Shown here one piece after another: positions 7,275 to 61,537 of a stretch of 64,000 bases of DNA. This DNA comes from Sycon ciliatum (Eukaryota > Porifera > Calcarea > Leucosolenida > Sycettidae), in assembly GCF_964019385.1 (NCBI RefSeq), contig NC_088650.1, positions 27,781,966 to 27,845,965 of the forward strand, in the 5' to 3' direction. Below the pieces are notes generated by a model. It had not been told where the DNA came from, made no database searches, and saw only the letters and a list, made by a program, of their open reading frames with translations. Each line of letters starts with the position of its first letter. The first letter of the stretch is position 1. Position numbers and translations under genes: made by a program.

Positions 7275-10137
7275 TCATACTTCGAAGTAGATACGCACCG
7301 TGTTCTTCAGTGTACTTGACATTGATGGTGAACTCTGTGGGGACTGCGAGTCGTATTTGCTCACAGCTGGCTCGAACGGCTCGCAGTGGTGGATTGAACT
7401 AATATGTCCACCCGTTGATGTCGCTGGCGAGGCAATGCGTGTGCTGCACATCAGAGGCTCGCGCCTGAAGCTTCCTACCAGCAGTTGCTGTGTTGTGGAG
7501 TCACCGATGCTTGCATCTGGTGATGCTCTTCGTCGAGTATTTCGGGAAGAAATGCGCGTGCTGCACATCAGCGGCTCTCGACCGAAGTGTTTCATTGCTG
7601 CTGCCTCTTGTTGTACTGATGTACCTTTGTTCTGTGCGAGGGTACTATTTGGGCTTGTGTGCTGGCCCGGTGAGGATGCTGTTTGGCAAGTACTTCTAGA
7701 AGGAATACGCGTGCTGCACATCAGCGGCTCTCGACCGAAGTGTTTCATTGCTGCTGCCTCTTGTTGTACTGATGTACCTTTGTTCTGTGCGAGGGTACTA
7801 TTTGGGCTTGTGTGCTGGCTCGGTGATGATGCTGTTTGGGAAGTACTTCTGGAAGGAATACGCGTGCTGCACATCAGTGGCTCTAGACTGAAGTGTCCCA
7901 TTGCTTCTTCCTCTTGTTGGCCGGGGGCATAGTTATTCTGCATGATTATACTAATATTTGGGCTTGTGTGCTGCTGCGGTGGTGGTGATGCCCTTTGCTG
8001 AGCATTTCTGGAAGAAATGCGTGTACTGCACATCAGCGGCTCTTGACTGAAGTGTTCCGTTGCTGCCACCTCCTGTTGGTTTGGGGTATCATTGTTCTGC
8101 AAAGACGAGGAGTGGATAGACTGCGTTGGCAATACGGCCGCATCCTGCTGTTCTGAACCACCGTTGTTCTGCAAAGAAGAAGAGCGGATAGATTGCATTG
8201 GGAATAAGGTAATGCCTAAGAAAGTTTGACGCCTCTTACCTGGGCCAACATCAATACAAAAGGGCACCAACAAGACAGAGACTATGAACACGCCATGGGG
8301 GGTTTCTCCCAGATATATCATAGCGTTGATTGAGTCTTATACAGCTGTCATTTTGGGCCTCGAAAGAGTCCAGCTTGAACCAGAGCGGACTCAAAATTCA
8401 AGTCCACGGACCATGACAGTGCCAGTTTGATAAAACGAAGCAACAAAGAAACAAAGCAAGGAAAGGTCAATGCAAAATGAAGGCTCAGGCATCCAGAAAG
8501 ACTATTTTAGCGGTATTTGTCCAGATCAAAGCAGCCCATCATACCAGTGACAGGCACTGCAAGTAAAGCGCTCGATTCTGTTTCGACTGTTGCCGAGCAA
8601 TACCCCCCCCCCCCCCCCCACACACACACACCCACACAAACATCCAGATGTTAATACAGCATTCCTGAGGCAGTATGACCATGGCCTTAGCTCACCTGTG
8701 ACGATAGCAATTGTTCTGAAACAAAGCTAGCATGACAGCTGCTGCAGAGAACTGGCGCTGTGTTCTGTGCGGCAAGCAAGCTTGGTGCCTATTGGAATAG
8801 AACGTAAGGAAAGAGATTGTGGACCAATCATAGACAACACACCCACGTCTAATATCTGAGAGTTGAATACACGCGCGTGCGTGCACGCGCACACACACAC
8901 ACACACACACACATACGGGACCTGGGACCAGGGACCAGTTACATCGTAATGACACTAGTGTGGGCTTTTTTGCTTTTTTCAAATCAGGCTTGGGCTATTT
9001 GGCTAAAACCAGATTGGATTGGGCCAGCATGTCTGTGCATTTACCGTTGTACGTGTGAACTGTTTGAAGGAGAAGTCTCAGAATGTCTATGGTTTGTACG
9101 ATCCGCTAAGAGAGGCTCTACTGTATACAGTCGTCCCTCTCTAATCCGGCACTTGTTTATCCGGAACCCTTGCCAACCGGCGCACTTTCTGACGAAACCG
9201 ATTTTTTTCGTTCAATTCCTACATCTTAATCCGGCACTTGAATTCCGCCTCCGGCAGTGACTTTTTGAAACGAATTGCTCAAACTGCACGTAGTTTGATT
9301 TCATAATCCGGCAGTCGTAAATCGCGTGCCGTACAGGTGCACTCCTTGCCAGGCCAGGCTAGGCTTGTCCAGGAGACAACGGCAGTCATCCATACTTTCT
9401 TATTTTAGCAAGGAGTAGTGTCCTGCCAATTTTCAGGTGTGTGTGTGTGTGCGTGTGTGTGTGTGCAAGAGTACATGTGAACATGTTCTCTGTTTTACTT
9501 TATCACTTTATCACTGTGTATATTCCCGGAGAACAATTGAGAATATAAAGCCGTGCACCAAATACTTGGGTCGACACGGAAGAACCCTGCGTTTTGACGT
9601 ACATATGATACATGCATGCAATTGGGTAGGGCCGGGTCAGAGGGCAGGATTTCTTAATCCAGCACCCTCGTTAATCCAGCAGAAAACGCCGTAGCAAAGG
9701 GTGACGGATTAGAGAGGGACGACTGTATTAGACAAGATAATGATAGTGACAATTCGACAAAGTTCATATGGCTCTCACGTCTGCGGTTGTGGCCGGAGAG
9801 AGATGATGAGATTTACCAGGATCGTGCTGAGATGGCAGATAGGTGAGGCCAGACCGTGATATCGAATGGTCCTCTTCCCTGGCTGCTGAGGTGCTATAGA
9901 CATGCAGCTCAACTGCAGGCGACGGTACACTGATATCCAGATGTTCAACCACTGGTGGTGATGATGATGATGAATCGGTGTCGCCCTGCAGTGATATTGC
10001 CCGTGCACAGAAGAGAAGGAATGTGTTTTTCTAGGACACAAGAAAGTTAACTGGGTATGGATTTCTTGCTGCAAGTGCATCAAGACGAGAAACCACCTTC
10101 AGCCGCACAGCCACACACACGCGCGCACCTACATGTG

Positions 10138-21742: not shown

Positions 21743-23871
21743 CTACTGCTTATCGCCTTCATCGTCCAGCTCATAGTCCTCATCATCCTGGTCCTCAACG
21801 ATATCTGGGATAATCTCCCCCTTCAGGTCGTACTGAATGCCGCGGCTGGTTTCCAACGCTTCAGAGCCATCCTGGACCGGCAATGAGTCAAGGAGGCGAC
21901 TGCGTTCGGTTTTGTCATTGCAATCCGCCCACTCATCATGTGGAACCTGTCAGCGTGCAAGCCAACCCGAAGCAAAACCAGGCAAACAACCATAATTATG
22001 ATGAGTAGGATCGTCAGAAACATGAAACTCATCTCAGACTTGTAACAGAACTAACTTCCTGTCACCTTACTGTGTGGAAAAGCTCTGTTTCAGGGCATAG
22101 AGCACTCGTCGAGCAGTGGACCTAACTCTAATTGCTTATTCCAATCCTATCCAGACAGCGCTGTGAAAAAAAGCTCTCTGTATTCTCCCAGTTAGAGTAC
22201 TGAAACTTGGTTGCTTTAAGCCGATTGAAATGCTTGCTTGTTCACTGGACTTTGCGATCGATTCAGCTTTGTAGTCAATCGGAGCTTCGCTGGTGAAAAC
22301 TAAAGGGGATTCACACGAGCAATTTTTTGCGATGCGAGATGCAACGGGCACAAAACCTGGGTAGTTCGTATCTAAATCCATATTCGGTCGACAGTGTTGA
22401 AGGGGTTCGAATCAGATCTTGAGTGTGACATTTTGCCTGAAGGTGCCCCTAGACCCCTTGATTCCACTGATTTCAAAATCTTAAATTCTCAAATTTGGTG
22501 CTTACAGCGTTTTGCACTGAAACTCTTCATTTCAAGATCATAGATGCCCAGTTCCTCTGACGTCAGGTAAGGTCTTTGATTTCAGCCGGGTTTTTAGGAT
22601 TCTGTCACATTTTAGTGGTTTCGAATGGATAAAGTACATGTATGACATTCAAGGATTCGGATGCCTCTTTTTTTTACTAGGTAGGCGTACAACATGTACA
22701 AAGGCGCACAAAGGGTGCACTGTATGATTTCTCTTGAAACTTTTCGGGGCGGGTACATTAAAATCTGGGTCCGAGGGCACAGCAGAAGTATGCACTGAGC
22801 TCTCATGCACAGGTAGGGTCACATATCCAGGTTTTTATCGGCCCGTGACCCCTTCGTTGTTTGAGATTATTAGTGTGAGTAATGGCTACCGAGGGTAGCA
22901 ATGGTCGGCTTTAGAGCGCATGGAGGAGGAGAGTTTTATGTATACATGTATAACTATAAGACTTAATTAAAGCATTCCATATTCTCGGTTTACAAATCTT
23001 CCCAAAAGACTTATTGACCGAACCCCACAAGCAGCATACCACCTTACCTGTATGACCTTCCAGCCAAGCGCGCATAGAGCGCGAACTTGCATGGTGGACA
23101 CTGCAAGACGACGCTTGGATCTGAACACACGGTCGGCGGGCGTGTCCACGAGAACCGCCACCGGCGTGAAGCCAACGCGGTTCAGCTCTTTCGCCGATAT
23201 CTTGAGCTTCTGCTCCAGCGTGGGAATCCACTTGACCATGCGTCCGTCGCGAAGCAGCATGGCATTCGCCGCAGAGCAGCCGTCGCCAGTCCGAGCCATT
23301 CTCACACCGTGCATGCCAAGGTGCTCGCCCATCTCCTTGGAAAACTGCTTCTCCGCGGAGCTGAGCGAAGTATGAGCGGTGCACGACTGCACCGCGTCCA
23401 AAGTCTTGCGCGGCATATCAAACGTAACCGTTCCATCCTCCACTTGTTTTTGCTTGGCCAAAGCGTACAGCTGAAATAGGTACATAACTCTCTTTTGGGG
23501 AAGATTTCGGACCTGCAGCAGAGTTGGAGAAAGAGAGCTGATTAATACGGAGGATTAGCAAGACGAAATTCGCGTTCGCAAACATTTTTCAGTTCGCGAA
23601 CTGGATTGCGAACTTTCGCACTTTTCATTCGGAAAAGTAGTCGGAACACGAATCGCGGATTCGTGTCAGGGCAGTCAAAAAAATTACCACGCTGTACTGT
23701 CTGTACACAATGTACGTCGTGTCAACGTCATGCATGTGCGAATTCTGTTTGCTAATCCTTCTCATAACGCGAATTCCGTCACTGAGTTGGACTTTCCTTG
23801 GAGAGCGAAAGCGAACGCGAATTTCGTCTTGCTAATCCTCCGTAATAAGTGACTTGTTGGTGACACGTGGA

Positions 23872-23902
<31 letters not shown>

Positions 23903-26900
23903 GAGGTGTGGGGGAGGGAGGAGGATGAGAGCGCCCGGGGGCTAAGTAGACAAGACGTTATAGAATAAAAATGGATCGGGAGATCCTAGGAGCACTGCAA
24001 ACACAGTAATTTTCAACATCAAGGGCTAGCCAGCTCAACTCGACAAATACAAGCACTTCAATATCTTGTAGGTGCATGCTGCTATTTTACAATACAGTCA
24101 GACCTTGCTTATCCAGTCCTCTTTTATCCGGATCCCTCGCCATCCGGAAGAAAATCGCTGGTCACCGATGTGCAGCATATGCTAGACAAACAACATAACC
24201 GGACCTCGCAATCCGCATGCCGGTGCATGATTTTGTGTACAGACTGGTTGAAATGTGTACAAAAAGCTTTGTCGTATCCGGTTGCACGTGGCTTGCAGAA
24301 GCTAGAATCAGGGAGTTGTACAACAAATGAGGTCCTTGACCTGCTGGATGCACACGGATAGCACTCAGTTGCACGCACTTGCCATTTTTCTCGCCTGTTT
24401 TACATATTGTGCACGCTAGTTGTACTGCATAGGACCCATCTACATGTACATGTATGTACGATGCCACTCCTTTTGATATGCCACATGCATAATACAGTAC
24501 CGGTATGTGTGTTCGTTATCCGGCTCCCTCGCCTATCCGGATATTTTTGTGGAAAACGGATGTGTGCGGTTAAGCGAGGTCTGACTGTAGTTCTGTACTA
24601 CTAAGCAGGTGTATTAGACACCACCCCCATACCATAACATCAGCATCTTGAGAAACATTATGAAACAACACAAATCAATCCAAGTAAGCCACTTTTCAAC
24701 ACTGTGTCCCCCAGCAGAATTTCTGGTGCTGAATGTGCCAGGGTTTCCAGACAATTACAAGTGTGCACGAAATCACTGACTTTGAAATCACAACTGCATT
24801 CATGCATAGGATCACATCAGGGGGGGGGGGATAGTCTATGCACAGTACGCATTCACATGTTAGTTACTGCACTGTACCTGTTCTGGTGTTATCTGGCACA
24901 ACGCCTGGACAGCCGGCTGCGGTATCACACCTTGCACCGCACACGCCCACACAACGTCGATCATCCACTGGCTCGTCGGCTGGATCTTGTAGTAGAGCTC
25001 CGGGTACTCGACTTCACGCGTCGCCGAAACGCTGGACCGATTCCCCTGCAGCGGTGTGCAAGTATTGGTAAGATGCTTACTGACCTGCTGGTAGAGTCGA
25101 GGTACGCCGTAGTTCAACTCGGACAATGCGGTCAGGGTTTCTATTGTACGATGTGGATTGTTCGTCAGCAGGTCCAACCAATTCATTATGACAAACTTAC
25201 CAACGGCATCCAGCATGCTGGTCCAGTAGATACCTAGCGTGGCGGAGCCCATGGCAAGACGGTGAGCATGAATGTCGTTCATGAGAGCAGCGTTGAAGGA
25301 CGTCTTGGGCAGCATCTGCGTCACCATGCGTTTCAGCCGGCGGCGAGGATCCACAGCATGTTTCAGCTCCTCCTTGGCAGTAGTCTTCTTCTTCTTGTCG
25401 CCAGACTGCTTCGCCTCGGCACGGTAGGCTGTATGCGCATTGGCTAGCGTGTAAAGCAGCTGGCTGCATTCAGCAAGGGATGCTTCTGGCGCTGCATCGC
25501 ATGCTTCCCTGGCAAGCTTGACGAGCTTGCGTGGCTCCAGGTGGCTGTACCGAGTCAGGAATGCAAGCAAAGGCACACACCCCGTGCCAGTCAGGAGCGG
25601 CCTGCGCTCTACCTCTGCGGCCAGCTCAATGGCAAGTGCGGCAACTTCGGGCCGTTCACACAGCACAGGCGTAGAGAGCAGCTGGCCGAGAGAGCCCATG
25701 TCATCGACGGAGTATTGCGACAGCGAGTACGTGATGTGCACCAGGGCATCACACAGAGCTCGGTCTGAAATTCTCTTAGAACGGTACAGGAAGGCGATGA
25801 TGCTGTGAAACATAGGTGGCTGCAGCTGACTGTGCAGGCTACTCAGGCGTTGCACAAAGTCAAACTTGAAGCCAACATAATTGGATCGCGAGAAGAGTAT
25901 TGCTAAATTATAGATCGTTCGTACACCAACATCCAGGCCACGAACACTCAGCATCGTGTCAAACTTCTTCAAGATATCTTCGTCAAATGTTTCCTGAGAA
26001 CACAACATGCATGCGCGCGCACGCACACACACGCACACACACACACACACACACACAGAAACGTGCCTTTGGCATTGGCTCCACTGTGCACTGAAAGTGG
26101 TGTTTCAGCACAGCACGTACTTCAGTCAGATAATTGGTCTATGGATTCTATGAAGACATGTACGTTTCTGCAATCTTCACGTACAGGTTTTACTGTCCAG
26201 TGTCCACATCCCCCAAACCATCCCCCAAACCATAGCAAAATAACAAACAAACAAACAACAAAGTCCGAAAGCTGCTGCTTACCTTCCTGGTAAACAAACA
26301 AACATAGCAACACAATTCACAGCAGCAAAAACATGACGAGAGTACTCCGTGACCTACCTCAATAGACATCATCTTGGCGAGCATGTTCACAAGCGGGCTG
26401 ACCGGGACAGAATCGCCGCGAGACTGTAACTCCTGCAGCAGGGCACGGATCAACTCCTTGCCACCCGCCGAGTCTTTCTTCCAGCTGGACCACTGCTCAA
26501 AGCCATCAACCGCCATAGTGCACAGCCACTGCATTGCGCGAACGTCGAGCTGGCTCATATGGGATAGGCACGCCATGTTTGTGTATGTCATTATGGCACC
26601 AAACTGAACATTGCCTTTATAGCAGCCGTACGCCGCGGACACGACGTCATTCGGCGAGGCAAGGTGCCGGACGGTGTTCAGCTTCTGAAGATAGACCAGC
26701 ATGCACTGGTGAGCACTCGTGTGCACCGCCTGATTGGCGCTGTTCACAAGTGGACCTAGTTTGCGCAACGTGTAGCAGATATCGGCTACGTCGGCCCGGT
26801 TAACTCGATCCGCCATTGCTTCGTACACAATTATTTCCATATCTACGGAGCGGTCGAGCTTGAGGAACTCTTTACTGGATAATACACTAACCATATCACC

Positions 26901-27485
26901 AGACTTAACATCATCAGCTCGTAATGACGAGTCCAGCCGGCGCAGGAGCTTGCTATGGCACAAGTCCAATGTGCGCTGGTGTTTCCGGATGCCCGAGCGA
27001 CTCAAGCGCGAGTACAGTGCCCACACGCCTTTCCAGTCCGACGTTGTCTCAAGCGCGGTTTTGAATGCATCGCGCTTTTCCCGCACAGCTGCAACTTCGG
27101 CGCTGCTAGCCGTCGCCGAGCTGCCAATCTGATATCTCACAGGCTCTGGCTCGTACTGCTGCTCTTGCTGATGCTGCTCTTGCCACGGTTGCTCCAGCTG
27201 CTGTTGTTCTTGGTGCTGTGGCTCCTGCTGCTGCTGCAGCAGGTGTTCTGGTTCCTGATGCTGTTGGTGATGCTCTGGTTCCTGATGATGTTGGTGGTGT
27301 TCTGGTTCCTGATGCTGTTGCTGATGCTCTGGCTGGTCCTGGCGTGCTAGTTTAGGAAAGAGCACACGTTGCCGACGGAAACGCACTGCGCCCACCGCCG
27401 ATCCATGTTGGAGCTGGCCCAACAGTGGTCTCAGGGCTCCACTGCGAGCTGACAAGAGAAATGCAACGGAGCTCATGCAGCTCAT
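21743..27485 (-). CDS. FAST kinase domain-containing (FASTKD) family protein with RAP domain
   Basis: A complete gene of four exons: 27485-26358, 25993-24878, 23512-23048 and 21946-21743 (stop TAG). All junctions are phase 0 with GT-AG sites; the total is 2913 nt, 970 residues. The N-terminus MSCMSSVAFLLSARSGALRP lacks acids and has Arg, as in mitochondrial presequences. Residues about 49-112 are Gln/His/Glu-rich (EPEHHQQHQ repeats). The centre is helical-repeat-like, as in the FAST_1/FAST_2 region. The C-terminal RAP domain (from about residue 860: TPVAVLVDTPADRVFRSKRR, then ALGWKVIQ joined to VPHDEW) is the clearest match. FASTK proteins bind and mature mitochondrial RNA. An acidic tail (EDQDDEDYELDDEGD) follows the RAP domain. 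Which paralogue it represents is unclear. Start: first ATG in the frame. Confidence 0.85.
22047..22940. other. FASTKD last intron, no recognised feature
   Basis: Most of the 1.1-kb intron between 23047 and 21947. A minus-strand open frame at 22381-22136 is not flanked by good splice sites and has no motif. I see no MITE ends here. Confidence 0.4.
23546..23844. mobile_element. MITE, TACGGAGGATTAGCAAGACG ends
   Basis: About 35 bp are inverted between TACGGAGGATTAGCAAGACG (23546) and CGTCTTGCTAATCCTCCGTA (23844), continuing into AAATTCGCGTTCGC. The interior is rich in TTCGCGA-like words in both directions. It lies in intron 2 of the FASTKD gene. Confidence 0.8.
23871..23905. repeat. (GA)n microsatellite
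   Basis: Short GA array next to the preceding MITE in FASTKD intron 2. Confidence 0.9.
24095..24587. mobile_element. pogo-like MITE, CAGTCAGACCTTGCTTATCC ends
   Basis: TA-flanked ends CAGTCAGACCTTGCTTATCC (24095) and GGTTAAGCGAGGTCTGACTG (24587). Sub-terminal ATCCGGATCCCTCGCCATCCGG and CTCGCCTATCCGGATA recur. It is in FASTKD intron 2, and shorter siblings lie at 50349 and 56381. Confidence 0.82.
26021..26057. repeat. (CA)n microsatellite in FASTKD intron 1
   Basis: AC array 28 bp upstream (in the gene's sense) of the exon beginning at 25993, so it forms a TG-rich, pyrimidine-poor stretch before that acceptor. Confidence 0.9.
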
Positions 27486-27800
27486 CGTAAAGGCGTTCAG
27501 CGATACATTCCCTTCCGATCTGCGACCAACAGTCCCCGATATACTAGCATATGTACGATATGTTACGAACACTTTCAAACAAACTTTCCTTGTGTTTCCT
27601 ATTAGTAGCTCCCAAGTTGAGATTCAAAGAAACTCAGAACAACACCCTATTACAAAAGTCAAAAGCAGAAAAATTCAAAAACTACTTTCAATCATTAATT
27701 TTTGATTGAAAAGCTAGAAAAAGCGAAGCTTTCGGACGCCATTGTTGGTTTCCTAGACGATACGAGATATGCCGACAATGCGCGCCCGCGGCCCGAAATA
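27486..27800 (-). promoter_or_regulatory. Putative FASTKD promoter / 5' UTR
   Basis: Sequence directly upstream of the FASTKD start. On the minus strand it contains CAATGGCGTCC (27744-27734), similar to the YY1-type ATGGCG element common near nuclear genes for mitochondrial proteins, and a GC-rich patch with GGTCTCGCGATA near 27800. There is no TATA box at a fixed distance. This is a position-plus-motif inference only. Confidence 0.3.
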
Positions 27801-27859
27801 TCGCGAGACCCCGGGTGATGCCCCCCCCCCCCGCCCGGGCCGCGGGGTACCCTGTTGTA

Positions 27860-27897
27860 CAGGGAGTCGTAAAATACCGGTATTTTACGACTCCTTG
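27860..27897. mobile_element. 38-bp palindromic hAT-like micro-element, copy 1
   Basis: CAGGGAGTCGTAAAATACC is followed by its reverse complement with one change near the end (CTCCTTG). The flanks CTGTTGTA (27852-27859) and CTGTTGTC (27898-27905) match at seven of eight bases, as expected for an aged hAT 8-bp duplication. The same palindrome occurs at 40340-40377 and 60180-60233. Confidence 0.75.
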
Positions 27898-27919
27898 CTG
27901 TTGTCCGTTGCCTATGCGT

Positions 27920-40256: not shown

Positions 40257-40601
40257 TAGGCCTTTCCGGATTATGTGTTTGCATATTTTTGCATTTTGGG
40301 GGTCAAAATGCATTTTGTCCATTTTGACCCACTTTGGGCCAGGGAGTCGTAAAATACCGGTATTTTACGACTCCCTGCAAGCGATAGGTACTTCACGATC
40401 ACCATGAATGATCACCATGGTGCCAAATGTCACGCGACTAGCTGTCGCCATTTTGTTACCATGGCAACGGTGGCATTTTTTGTGCTTTTTGGGTAAATTT
40501 TTGCATTTTCTTTAGAAAAAAATTTGATTTATAGGGGTTTTTCAAAACACTTTCCATTTCCATTTTAGACCAAGAAAAAACGCATAATCCGGAAAAGCCT
40601 A
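40257..40601. mobile_element. hAT-like MITE with perfect 8-bp duplication
   Basis: The ends TAGGCCTTTCCGGATTATG (40257) and CATAATCCGGAAAAGCCTA (40601) are inverted with one mismatch and one indel. The 8-bp duplication TCCAGAGC is exact at 40249-40256 and 40602-40609. The element contains the 38-bp palindrome at 40340-40377. Confidence 0.87.
40340..40377. mobile_element. 38-bp palindromic micro-element, copy 2 (perfect)
   Basis: CAGGGAGTCGTAAAATACC is followed by its exact reverse complement GGTATTTTACGACTCCCTG. The flanks CTTTGGGC and CAAGCGAT do not match, so this copy either lost its duplication or came in as part of the host MITE. Confidence 0.75.
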
Positions 40602-42777: not shown

Positions 42778-55055
<12,278 letters not shown>

Positions 55056-56380: not shown

Positions 56381-56567
56381 CAGTCAGACCTCGCTTAACC
56401 GCATACATCTGTTTTCCACAAAAATATCCCGATAGGCGAGGGAACCGGATAACCGAACACCGGTTATGTTGGATGCACTATGCGTACTGTAAATCTGTAA
56501 TCAGCTATGTGCTTCCGGATGGCGAGGGATCCGGATAAGAGAGGACCGGATAAGCGAGGTCTGATTG
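56381..56567. mobile_element. pogo-like MITE, CAGTCAGACCTCGCTTAACCGC ends
   Basis: TA-flanked, 187 bp, the third copy of the family at 24095 and 50349. It is in the opposite orientation to 50349: CCACAAAAATATCCCGATAGGC is at the left here and the CCGGATGGCGAGGGATCCGG block at the right. Confidence 0.83.
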
Positions 56568-56942
56568 TACCAGCTACTACTTCAAAGAAGTACTTCTACC
56601 GACTTCTTCCAGCCTCAGACCAGGTAGAACCAGAAAGAGAAAGTAGAATCTACCGTTGCGGGTGGAAGAAACAAACACATCAACCGAAAGAAGCTCATGT
56701 AGCTAGTTTCTACCGACACCTTTAAATCACCCCCCCCCCCCCCATATTATCACTTTCGCCAGCAATGGATCCCTTGATATAGGGTTAATCTCACAACAGA
56801 GCGTGCACGCGCATGCAGTACCGAAAGTCCAAGCAAAAAAGAGAAAAGAATGGTGTACACATTGATTTCCAAGAGGGGAAGGAAAGTCGTTGAGTTGTAG
56901 TAAGACCGGTATGTCCAATTGTCTTGCTAGTTTGGTCTTCAT

Positions 56943-60042: not shown

Positions 60043-60179
60043 ATGTCTGGGGTCTACGAGAGCAACTTGGAACAGAGAAAACAGTACTTCTCCTGTAAAT
60101 TTATCTATTCTTTAGTCGAGTACTAGTATTGGGAGTCCTGAGCATTTCGCCGGAGACTGAACTAACACTTGATAAACAT

Positions 60180-60233
60180 CAGGGAGTCGTAAAATACCCC
60201 CCCCCCCCCCGGGTGGTATTTTACGACTCCCTG
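60180..60233. mobile_element. 54-bp palindromic hAT-like micro-element with perfect 8-bp duplication, copy 3
   Basis: Same palindrome as 27860 and 40340, but the central CCGG has expanded into 14 C followed by GGGTGG. ATAAACAT is exactly duplicated at 60172-60179 and 60234-60241 and fits nTnnnnAn. Confidence 0.85.
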
Positions 60234-60250
60234 ATAAACATGTACATTGT

Positions 60251-60537: not shown

Positions 60538-60545
60538 TGATTGTA

Positions 60546-60898
60546 CAGTTGTGGCAAGTGAAATCCGACACTTGCCATAGGGGACAGCGCCTCAAATGGA
60601 CATCAATGATGTAATGCACTGCACCTAATTTGTACTATAGAGCCGTATGCATCCCAAACAGGTCGAAAGGTCACAGCGTTGATACACACAGTTCACAGAC
60701 ATGGTACACATAAGGATCCAATTCCCATTCATTTTTGCTAGCACCTTTTGAACCTTGACTGTGATGAGTACGAATTCTGTCATCAGACAGATAAAGTTGT
60801 ATGCAACACATGTACTGTACGTATGCAGGGCTGCAGAGGCTGCAGGATGCACGGTGCAGTCCCTTATGCCAAGTGTCGGATTTCACTTGCCACAACTG
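60546..60898. mobile_element. Tc1/mariner-like MITE, CAGTTGTGGCAAGTGAAATC ends, copy 1
   Basis: TA-flanked. The inverted terminal repeat is about 36 bp, CAGTTGTGGCAAGTGAAATC to GATTTCACTTGCCACAACTG. 353 bp, no coding capacity. Almost identical to the next copy. Confidence 0.87.
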
Positions 60899-60906
60899 TA
60901 CATGTA

Positions 60907-61268
60907 CAGTTGTGGCAAGTGAAATCCGACACTTGCCATAGGGGACAGCGCCTCAAATGGACATCAATGATGTAATGCACTGCACCTAATTTGTACTATA
61001 GAGCCGTGTGCATCCCAAACAGGTCGAAAGGTCACAGCTTAGATACACACAGTTCACAAACATGGTACACATAAGGAGTATTGGTATCCAATTCCCATTC
61101 ATTTTTGCCAGCAGCTTTTGAACCTTGACTGTGATGAGTACGAATTCTGTCATTAGACAGATAATGTTGTATGCAACACATGTACTGTACGTATGCAGGG
61201 CTGCAGAGGCTGCAGGATGCACGGTGCAGTCCCTTATGCCAAGTGTCGGATTTCACTTGCCACAACTG
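60907..61268. mobile_element. Tc1/mariner-like MITE, same family, copy 2 in tandem
   Basis: 362 bp, same orientation and over 95% identical by eye to 60546-60898. The main difference is a 9-bp insertion in this copy (AGTATTGGT near 61077). The two copies are separated only by TACATGTA. Confidence 0.87.
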
Positions 61269-61537
61269 TACATGTAGTAGAAGGTGCCGTGGTTTTGATT
61301 TATTTTTTCGAGAAAGAAAACCCCCAACAGCACCGATTGAAAAAAAGCGATTTTGTGTAATTTTCACTACATTCATATCTATCTTTCTTACCCGGGCAGT
61401 CCGGGACTGGGCGCTGCCCATAACTTGGAAAGTCCCGTAACTCTCAAGTCTGAATCATGTACATGTATGTGTTGATATCAAAAAGTAGTATGTGACATCA
61501 CTATTTCCACAAAAATTGGCAAGACAGTAGTAAATTA

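What the first reader, a model, noticed from the sequence alone, without database searches (positions are those of the whole stretch)
60172..60241. A repeated 38-bp palindrome family with hAT hallmarks in three places
Copies at 27860-27897, 40340-40377 and 60180-60233 share CAGGGAGTCGTAAAATACC and its complement. The third has an exact 8-bp duplication ATAAACAT, the first a 7/8 match, the second none. CAGGG...CCCTG ends and 8-bp duplications point to hAT transposase acting on a minimal substrate. Three copies in 64 kb implies thousands of copies per genome if density is even.
Basis: partly seen in the sequence, partly recalled or inferred. Interest (0 to 1): 0.88.

Follow-up and report, generated by a model that had tools for sequence, protein, structure and literature searches.

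The report
Palindromic scars of departed P transposons
The little palindromes look like scars left where P-element-type jumping genes cut themselves out of a sponge genome, each holding the two stubs of the departed element rejoined by DNA repair.

Summary
The palindromes are real and far beyond chance, but they are not hAT minimal transposons. The window's assembly (538 Mb; inferred to be the calcareous sponge Sycon ciliatum) holds 10,399 arm matches (control 5) and 857 places with the 38-mer. Long elements with the same ends and 8-bp duplications exist; one (6.9 kb) encodes a P-superfamily transposase with conserved D, D, E. Drosophila P transposase leaves 17-nt stubs of the terminal repeat on the donor flanks. 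Two 19-nt stubs joined end to end give the 38-bp palindrome. Junctions fit: blunt cores (1,008 exact), trimmed joins (465), fillers (141; all 11 listed fillers of 5 nt or more differ). A second P family allowed a prediction: 97 scars found, control 0, blunt 20+20 the commonest listed form; 9 of 10 sampled have duplications of at least 7/8. Window copies 1 and 3 are such scars; copy 2 is a passenger in a dispersed repeat. Passengers inflate the genome counts. The staggered cut is inferred; no site with a full element in one copy and a scar in another was found.

The parts
60172..60179 (.). Left 8-bp target duplication ATAAACAT of scar 3
   Evidence: Exact match to 60234-60241
60180..60198 (+). 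Left terminal-repeat stub (19 nt, CAGGGAGTCGTAAAATACC)
   Evidence: Identical to the first 19 nt of the long elements L013, L014, L015 and L107
60199..60214 (.). 16-nt repair filler CCCCCCCCCCCCGGGT between two intact stubs
   Evidence: same class as the 141 matches with 1-16 nt between the inner 9 nt of both stubs
60215..60233 (-). Right terminal-repeat stub (19 nt)
   Evidence: Reverse complement of the left stub
60234..60241 (.). Right 8-bp target duplication ATAAACAT
27852..27859 (.). Left target duplication of scar 1, CTGTTGTA
   Evidence: 7 of 8 to 27898-27905
27860..27897 (.). Scar 1: two 19-nt stubs joined blunt, 38 bp, one mutated position near the right end
27898..27905 (.). Right target duplication of scar 1, CTGTTGTC
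40340..40377 (.). Copy 2: perfect 38-bp palindrome carried as a passenger inside a dispersed repeat; no target duplication

Best explanation
The palindromes are excision scars of a P-superfamily DNA transposon. The transposase inserts the element with an 8-bp duplication. When it cuts the element out, it cuts one strand at the element's end and the other strand 19 nt inside the terminal repeat, after TACC and before GGGAGG. Each flank of the donor site so keeps a 19-nt 3' tail of the terminal repeat. The cell fills in and joins the two identical tails. A blunt join of full tails gives CAGGGAGTCGTAAAATACC|GGTATTTTACGACTCCCTG, the perfect 38-bp palindrome; trimming, often at a microhomology, gives 30-37 bp; added or templated letters give 39 bp and more (copy 3: 54 bp). 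Some scars were later carried along inside other repeats (copy 2). Shown here: long elements with these termini and exact duplications, the encoded P-type transposase with its catalytic triad, intact duplications at most sampled scars, the junction spectrum, and the same pattern for a second P family. Inferred: the staggered cut itself and the repair route, taken from Drosophila P work; no excision was observed.
For: (a) Long elements with the same 19-nt ends and exact 8-bp duplications: L013 (2,148 bp, GTGCTGAG), L014 (2,169, GTGTTCGC), L015 (2,153, CTAATCCA), L106 (4,910, ATGAAAAC) and L107 (6,926, GTTCGAAT). The 32-bp terminal repeat occurs 242 + 263 times at up to 3 mismatches, control 0. 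(b) Empty sites: joined flanks of L013 with one duplication copy match over query 1-400 at 94-99% in 29 of 40 listed matches (82 candidates); 24 of the 29 targets are exactly 400 bases, the others 389-409. (c) L107 carries a 1,002-aa open frame with TNP-like RNase H and GTP-binding domains; D619, D711 and E942 align with D230, D303 and E531 of P transposase (residues named in PMC7776569). Three intact frames of 99-100% identity in the genome. (d) Duplications at short copies: 32 of 49 exact, 11 at 7/8, 1 at 6/8, 5 at 4/8 or less (after dropping 3 from one tandem array); no exact match among re-paired flanks, 0.4% at 7/8. T at position 2 in 25 of 32 and A at position 7 in 22 of 32. (e) Reciprocal empty sites: L032 and L048 are paralogs with scars 5 bp apart, each uninterrupted where the other is interrupted. 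(f) Junctions: 1,008 exact blunt 18-base cores, control 0; 141 matches with 1-16 nt between the inner 9 nt of both stubs, control 2, 49 listed sites analysed: 28 with 1 nt, 11 of 11 fillers of 5 nt or more distinct, 3 sharing 10-12 nt with the tails, none continuing into the interior; 465 shorter, control 0, 17 forms among 50 listed. Of 20 such non-38 sites fetched, 10 usable: 9 exact duplications, 1 at 6/8. (g) Drosophila P: 17-nt 3' tails; repair products with blunt joins, TA or AT microhomology and templated fillers (PMC7776569 passages, PMC5466332 passages and section 9). (h) Out-of-sample test: the second family's terminus, CAGGGAGCCCTACACATACCGGGAGG, predicted its scars; 97 found, control 0; 50 listed: 10 blunt 20+20, 7 TA form, 27 forms in all; duplications in 10 sampled of 97: 7 exact, 2 at 7/8, 1 at 6/8.
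Against: No locus was found where a full element in one copy matches a scar at the same site in another: none in register among fetched flanks of at least 60 bp, none among the 40 scored L013 paralogs. Blunt joins are a larger share in family 1 (1,008 against 141 + 465; arm lengths of the three patterns differ by one nt) than in family 2 (10 of 50 listed), which this reading does not explain. Passengers inflate counts: the copy-2 repeat (117 candidates, 40 scored), and of the 10 sampled 32-bp TA-form sites, the commonest short form, 7 lie in one larger repeat without duplications, 1 is complex and 2 have their own exact duplication. A GGGC middle recurs at three places with three different exact duplications. 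L016 has a doubled right end and its duplication is out of register. By my sum more than half of the 10,399 arm matches are not assigned to a class.
Confidence: 0.9

Rival explanations
1. The 38-bp palindrome is itself a mobile element: two joined terminal repeats that the P transposase moves as a unit (a repeat-only MITE).
For: One length dominates (46 of 52 distinct short copies are 38 bp, though most were fetched by a 38-mer search); hundreds of near-perfect copies, 27 of 43 sampled 38-bp copies with exact duplications; blunt share higher in family 1 than in family 2.
Against: Listed fillers of 5 nt or more are private to each site (11 of 11 distinct), and many junctions follow microhomologies of the tails, which a copied unit would not show. 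The second family behaves the same way with its own length. [quoted passage not shown] a 38-mer has no interior at all.
Confidence: 0.07
2. hAT minimal elements.
For: CAGGG ends, 8-bp duplications with T at 2 and A at 7; many hAT domains in the genome (150 scored of 422 candidates).
Against: The element that shares these ends encodes a P-type transposase. Among 30 fetched hAT loci none has the arm head at up to 2 mismatches, but they reach only 1.5 kb out. hAT excision leaves hairpins on the donor flanks and random footprints (PMC3878927, passages), not stubs of the terminal repeat.
Confidence: 0.02
3. Internal deletion of long elements during interrupted gap repair, with the CCGG shared by both ends as the joining point.
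For: Deletion between the CCGG of the left and right ends would give exactly the 38-mer (termini). Internally deleted elements exist (L016 and L107 are 99% and 96% identical over their main shared parts).
Against: Does not predict private fillers set exactly after TACC, nor the trimmed series below 38, nor the same in a second family. None of 49 listed filler sites continues into the interior GGGA.
Confidence: 0.04

Closest known systems
Drosophila melanogaster P element excision junctions (PMC5466332: passages and section 9 read; PMC7776569: passages read)
   Same: 8-bp duplication kept on both sides; terminal-repeat stubs kept in many products; blunt joins, TA and AT microhomology joins, templated fillers; P-type transposase with D, D, E.
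   Different: Stub 17 nt in the fly, 19 and 20 nt (inferred) in the two families here. The fly products come from an engineered assay, in which 14 joins used long microhomologies that removed the stubs; here the scars are natural and many in one genome. The transposase here has C2H2-type zinc-finger matches and no THAP match.
Zebrafish Pdre2 / THAP9 P-like elements (PMC7776569 figure legend, passage read)
   Same: P superfamily, 8-bp duplications.
   Different: 13-bp terminal repeats there, 32-bp here; scars of that family were not examined here.
hAT MITEs (e.g. Mar, PMC3517528, listing and abstract start only)
   Same: Short, inverted repeats; 8-bp duplications (recalled).
   Different: No hAT transposase was found with these termini; length, palindromy and junctions follow a P-type stub, not a conserved internal sequence.

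Membership tests
P superfamily (the source element) | Transposase with TNP-like RNase H and GTP-binding insertion domain | tested here: met
   PF21787 69.2 bits (cut-off 24.6), PF21788 24.9 bits (cut-off 24.8); PF21789 16.2 bits, below its cut-off 24; PDB 6p5a E 1.9e-6
P superfamily (the source element) | Catalytic D230, D303, E531 | tested here: met
   D619, D711, E942 in the alignment; residues named in PMC7776569
P superfamily (the source element) | 8-bp target duplication | tested here: met
   L013, L014, L015, L106, L107 exact; L016 not in register; empty sites for L013
P superfamily (the source element) | THAP DNA-binding domain | tested here: not met
   No THAP match at E up to 0.1; C2H2-type PF21816 at residues 445-468 instead. 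THAP is described for the fly and THAP9 proteins; I take it as typical, not as defining the superfamily
P-type excision scar | Stubs of the terminal repeat between two intact target duplications | tested here: met
   32 of 49 exact, 43 of 49 at least 7/8; 9 of 10 usable non-38 sites exact, 20 fetched, 10 set aside; family 2: 9 of 10 at least 7/8
P-type excision scar | Junction spectrum of two identical 3' tails: blunt, microhomology, filler | tested here: met
P-type excision scar | Long staggered cut inside the terminal repeat | not testable with these tools
   Inferred from where the stubs end; needs purified transposase
hAT element | hAT domain in the protein of the element with these termini | tested here: not met
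   None of the five Pfam matches at E up to 0.1 is hAT
hAT element | Some hAT element of this genome with the same termini | tested here: inconclusive
   30 of 150 matches fetched, 1.5 kb to each side: none at up to 2 mismatches, 7 single-ended at 3

The most novel reading that the evidence does not exclude
Besides being scars, some exact 38-mers are moved again by the P transposase, which would make a transposon consisting of nothing but its two ends. The higher share of blunt 38-mers in family 1 than of 40-mers in family 2 leaves this open.
Probability: 0.07. Interest if true: 0.85.

Novelty: new variant of a known kind. Interest (0 to 1): 0.62.

Why it matters
Stub-bearing repair products of P excision are documented in fly assays. 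If this reading holds, a sponge genome keeps a natural record of hundreds, perhaps more than a thousand, double-strand breaks of known structure (two identical 19-nt 3' tails), each with its repair outcome. That would let the balance of end-joining routes in an early-branching animal be counted from one assembly. It also suggests that the long staggered cut inside the terminal repeat is shared by fly and sponge members of the P superfamily, with the cut following the sequence (TACC before GGGAGG; 19 nt in one family, 20 in the other) rather than a fixed distance. For annotation it is a warning: such palindromes could be filed as MITEs although they are what remains after an element has left.

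Tried and rejected
hAT reading: tested through the protein of the element with these termini and, weakly, through fetched hAT loci; rejected. Prokaryote and viral collections: the 19-mer has 0 matches in viral contigs and 4 in bacterial and archaeal contigs; the best inverted partner within 1,500 bases has 8 mismatches in each; about two are expected by chance by my own estimate. RNA families and tRNAs in the window: none reported. Full-text search for the 15-mer: 0 papers. Papers on P excision scars genome-wide or in sponges: the searches showed capped lists; I recognised none from titles and abstract starts. Subscription papers are not held, so absence from print is not claimed. Scar and full element at one site: sought, not found. 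Copy 3 flanks: among 40 scored of 2,270 candidates the left flank matched only itself, and the right flank runs into a high-copy repeat, in most matches from about 6-12 bp beyond the duplication; no empty site. NCBIfam on the transposase: 0 families.

Rows dropped before counts: 3 copies of tandem array L031 from the 52. From the 20 sites: 7 in one repeat and 3 complex ones (L112, L126, L127). One overlapping row of the 50 listed filler rows. Two of the five low-match short copies (L065, L027) show an exact duplication if an extra stub or 5 outer nt are allowed; they are still counted as low. The duplication counts include the three window copies. Samples were taken in list order or by my choice, mostly from contig C1, not at random.

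Full report
Observation. The three copies are present at the stated places. Copy 1 is 38 bp with one mutated position and 7 of 8 matching flanks; copy 2 is a perfect 38-bp palindrome without a duplication; copy 3 is 54 bp, with 19-nt arms, a 16-nt C-rich middle and the exact duplication ATAAACAT. The copies share no flanking sequence with each other.

Genome. The window lies in G000:C9:27781966-27845965 of a 538,412,230-base assembly in 313 contigs. I infer the calcareous sponge Sycon ciliatum: a protein named LOC135816702 [Sycon ciliatum] is recorded with a longest contig of 38,951,906 bases, which is the length of contig C5 here. The arm occurs 5,092 + 5,307 times at up to 2 mismatches against 5 for the reversed control; the 38-mer 857 times at up to 2 mismatches against 0; the exact 18-base core 1,008 times against 0.

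Insertion hallmarks. Of 49 short copies (52 distinct less 3 from one tandem array; the window's three are included), 32 have an exact 8-bp duplication, 11 match 7 of 8, 1 matches 6 and 5 match 4 or fewer; for the 43 that are exactly 38 bp the counts are 27, 10, 1 and 5. Pairing left and right flanks of different copies gives no exact match and 0.4% at 7 of 8. Exact duplications have T at position 2 in 25 of 32 and A at position 7 in 22 of 32. Two paralogs of one repeat, L032 and L048, carry scars 5 bp apart with duplications AGCAGGAT and GATCAAAT; each shows the other's uninterrupted site.

Source element. Elements of 2.1-2.2 kb with the same ends and exact duplications share a 32-bp terminal repeat, CAGGGAGTCGTAAAATACCGGGAGGCGACACG, found 242 + 263 times at up to 3 mismatches. 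The joined flanks of L013 with one duplication copy match over query 1-400 in 29 of 40 listed matches (82 candidates), 24 of them with a target of exactly 400 bases; so its borders and 8-bp duplication are well supported. L107 (6,926 bp, GTTCGAAT on both sides) has a 1,002-aa open frame. Pfam finds TNP-like RNase H (5.8e-19), the GTP-binding insertion domain (2.9e-5, just above cut-off), a weak C-terminal RNase H match below cut-off and a C2H2 finger; no THAP and no hAT domain at E up to 0.1. By sequence its best PDB relative is the Drosophila P transposase (6p5a, E 1.9e-6), with D619, D711 and E942 aligned to D230, D303 and E531. Three intact frames of 99-100% identity exist (C5:19785409, C11:9286374, C5:12818599), and a 983-aa protein 99% identical over the searched region is held from EukProt, so the family looks young; activity is not shown.

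Why scars. [quoted passage not shown] PMC5466332 (passages and section 9 read) gives the donor after excision as acccagacCATGATGAAATAACATA / TATGTTATTTCATCATGacccagac and lists repair products: long and short microhomology joins, blunt joins and insertions, many templated. The 38-mer is the same object with a 19-nt stub. The junctions here fall into the same classes. Blunt: 1,008 exact cores. Filler: 141 matches with 1-16 nt between the inner 9 nt of both stubs, control 2; of 49 listed and analysed, 28 have 1 nt, 7 have 2 nt, all 11 of 5 nt or more are distinct, 3 share 10-12 nt with the tails, and none runs on into the interior of the element. Shorter: 465, control 0; of 50 listed, 15 are the TA microhomology form, 8 have lost one nucleotide, and 17 forms occur in all. 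Of 20 such sites fetched, 7 of the 10 TA-form ones lie in one larger repeat, and 3 sites are complex; of the other 10, 9 have an exact duplication and 1 matches 6 of 8. The TA form is therefore over-counted.

Out-of-sample test. tblastn showed diverged intact relatives. Comparing two copies of one (39% identical protein) gave its right end, reverse complement CAGGGAGCCCTACACATACCGGGAGGTGACACG. The scar reading predicts palindromes of 20+20 or 19+19 with this sequence; the prediction was noted before the search. The search found 97, control 0. Of 50 listed, 10 are the blunt 20+20 form, the commonest, and 7 the TA form, with 27 forms in all. Ten were fetched: 7 exact duplications, 2 at 7/8, 1 at 6/8. 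In the full-length joins the stub ends after TACC in both families, 19 nt in one and 20 nt in the other, so the inferred cut follows the sequence, not a fixed distance.

Copy 2 and other passengers. The joined flanks of copy 2 match 39 other places among 40 scored (117 candidates). In 38 of these the match spans the junction and the target is longer than the query stretch: by 37-40 bases in 26 (exactly 38 in 14) and by 47-60 in 12. The remaining one (C4:13604970) matches only the right flank. Letters were read at two places: at C4 the whole palindrome is there with two changed letters, and at C9:19605137 the stretch read shows its right 24 bases. Copy 2 is thus a passenger, not an event at this site. 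Passengers inflate the genome counts by an unknown amount.

What is not explained. Blunt joins dominate family 1 more than family 2. A GGGC middle recurs at three places with three different duplications. L019 has inverted flanks, L065 a doubled stub, and L112 looks like a scar inside a scar. More than half of the 10,399 arm matches are unassigned. I found no site with a full element in one copy and a scar in the other.

Noticed in passing
window 60870-60935 within 60542-61276: A 370-bp tandem duplication with a perfect 66-bp palindrome, close to a high-copy inverted-repeat element that begins a few bases beyond copy 3's right duplication.
   Followed up: partly
window 24093-24591, 50343-50540, 56384-56573: Repeats with ends like TACAGTCAGACCTCGCTTATCCGG, which I recall as pogo/Tigger-like.
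   Followed up: no
window 50557-50895 and 52769-53248 (+): A cyclin exon (PF00134 E 3.4e-14); the second frame reads like a further cyclin exon but has no Pfam match.
   Followed up: no
window 22967-27623 (-): A multi-exon gene that reads like a FAST kinase / RAP-domain protein; Pfam support is below cut-off (RAP E 0.036).
   Followed up: partly
window 7275-8336 (-): 353-aa open frame over a 153-bp tandem repeat, with no Pfam match.
   Followed up: no
L107:4642-6369 (-), also L016 and L013: Second open frames (420 and 141 aa) on the strand opposite the transposase, partly kept in copies without it; no family above cut-off.
   Followed up: partly
L006:282-319 and L006:2113-2150: Sister palindromes; the first has the same changes in both arms (CAGGGAGTAGTACAATACC) and an exact duplication, perhaps a scar of a related P family.
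   Followed up: no
L031:310-569: An 87-bp tandem array that carries the palindrome in each unit: a scar turned into a minisatellite.
   Followed up: partly
L108-L110, L113-L116: One dispersed repeat with a 32-bp palindrome inside, mostly bordered by TCGAC on the left and GTCGA on the right.
   Followed up: no
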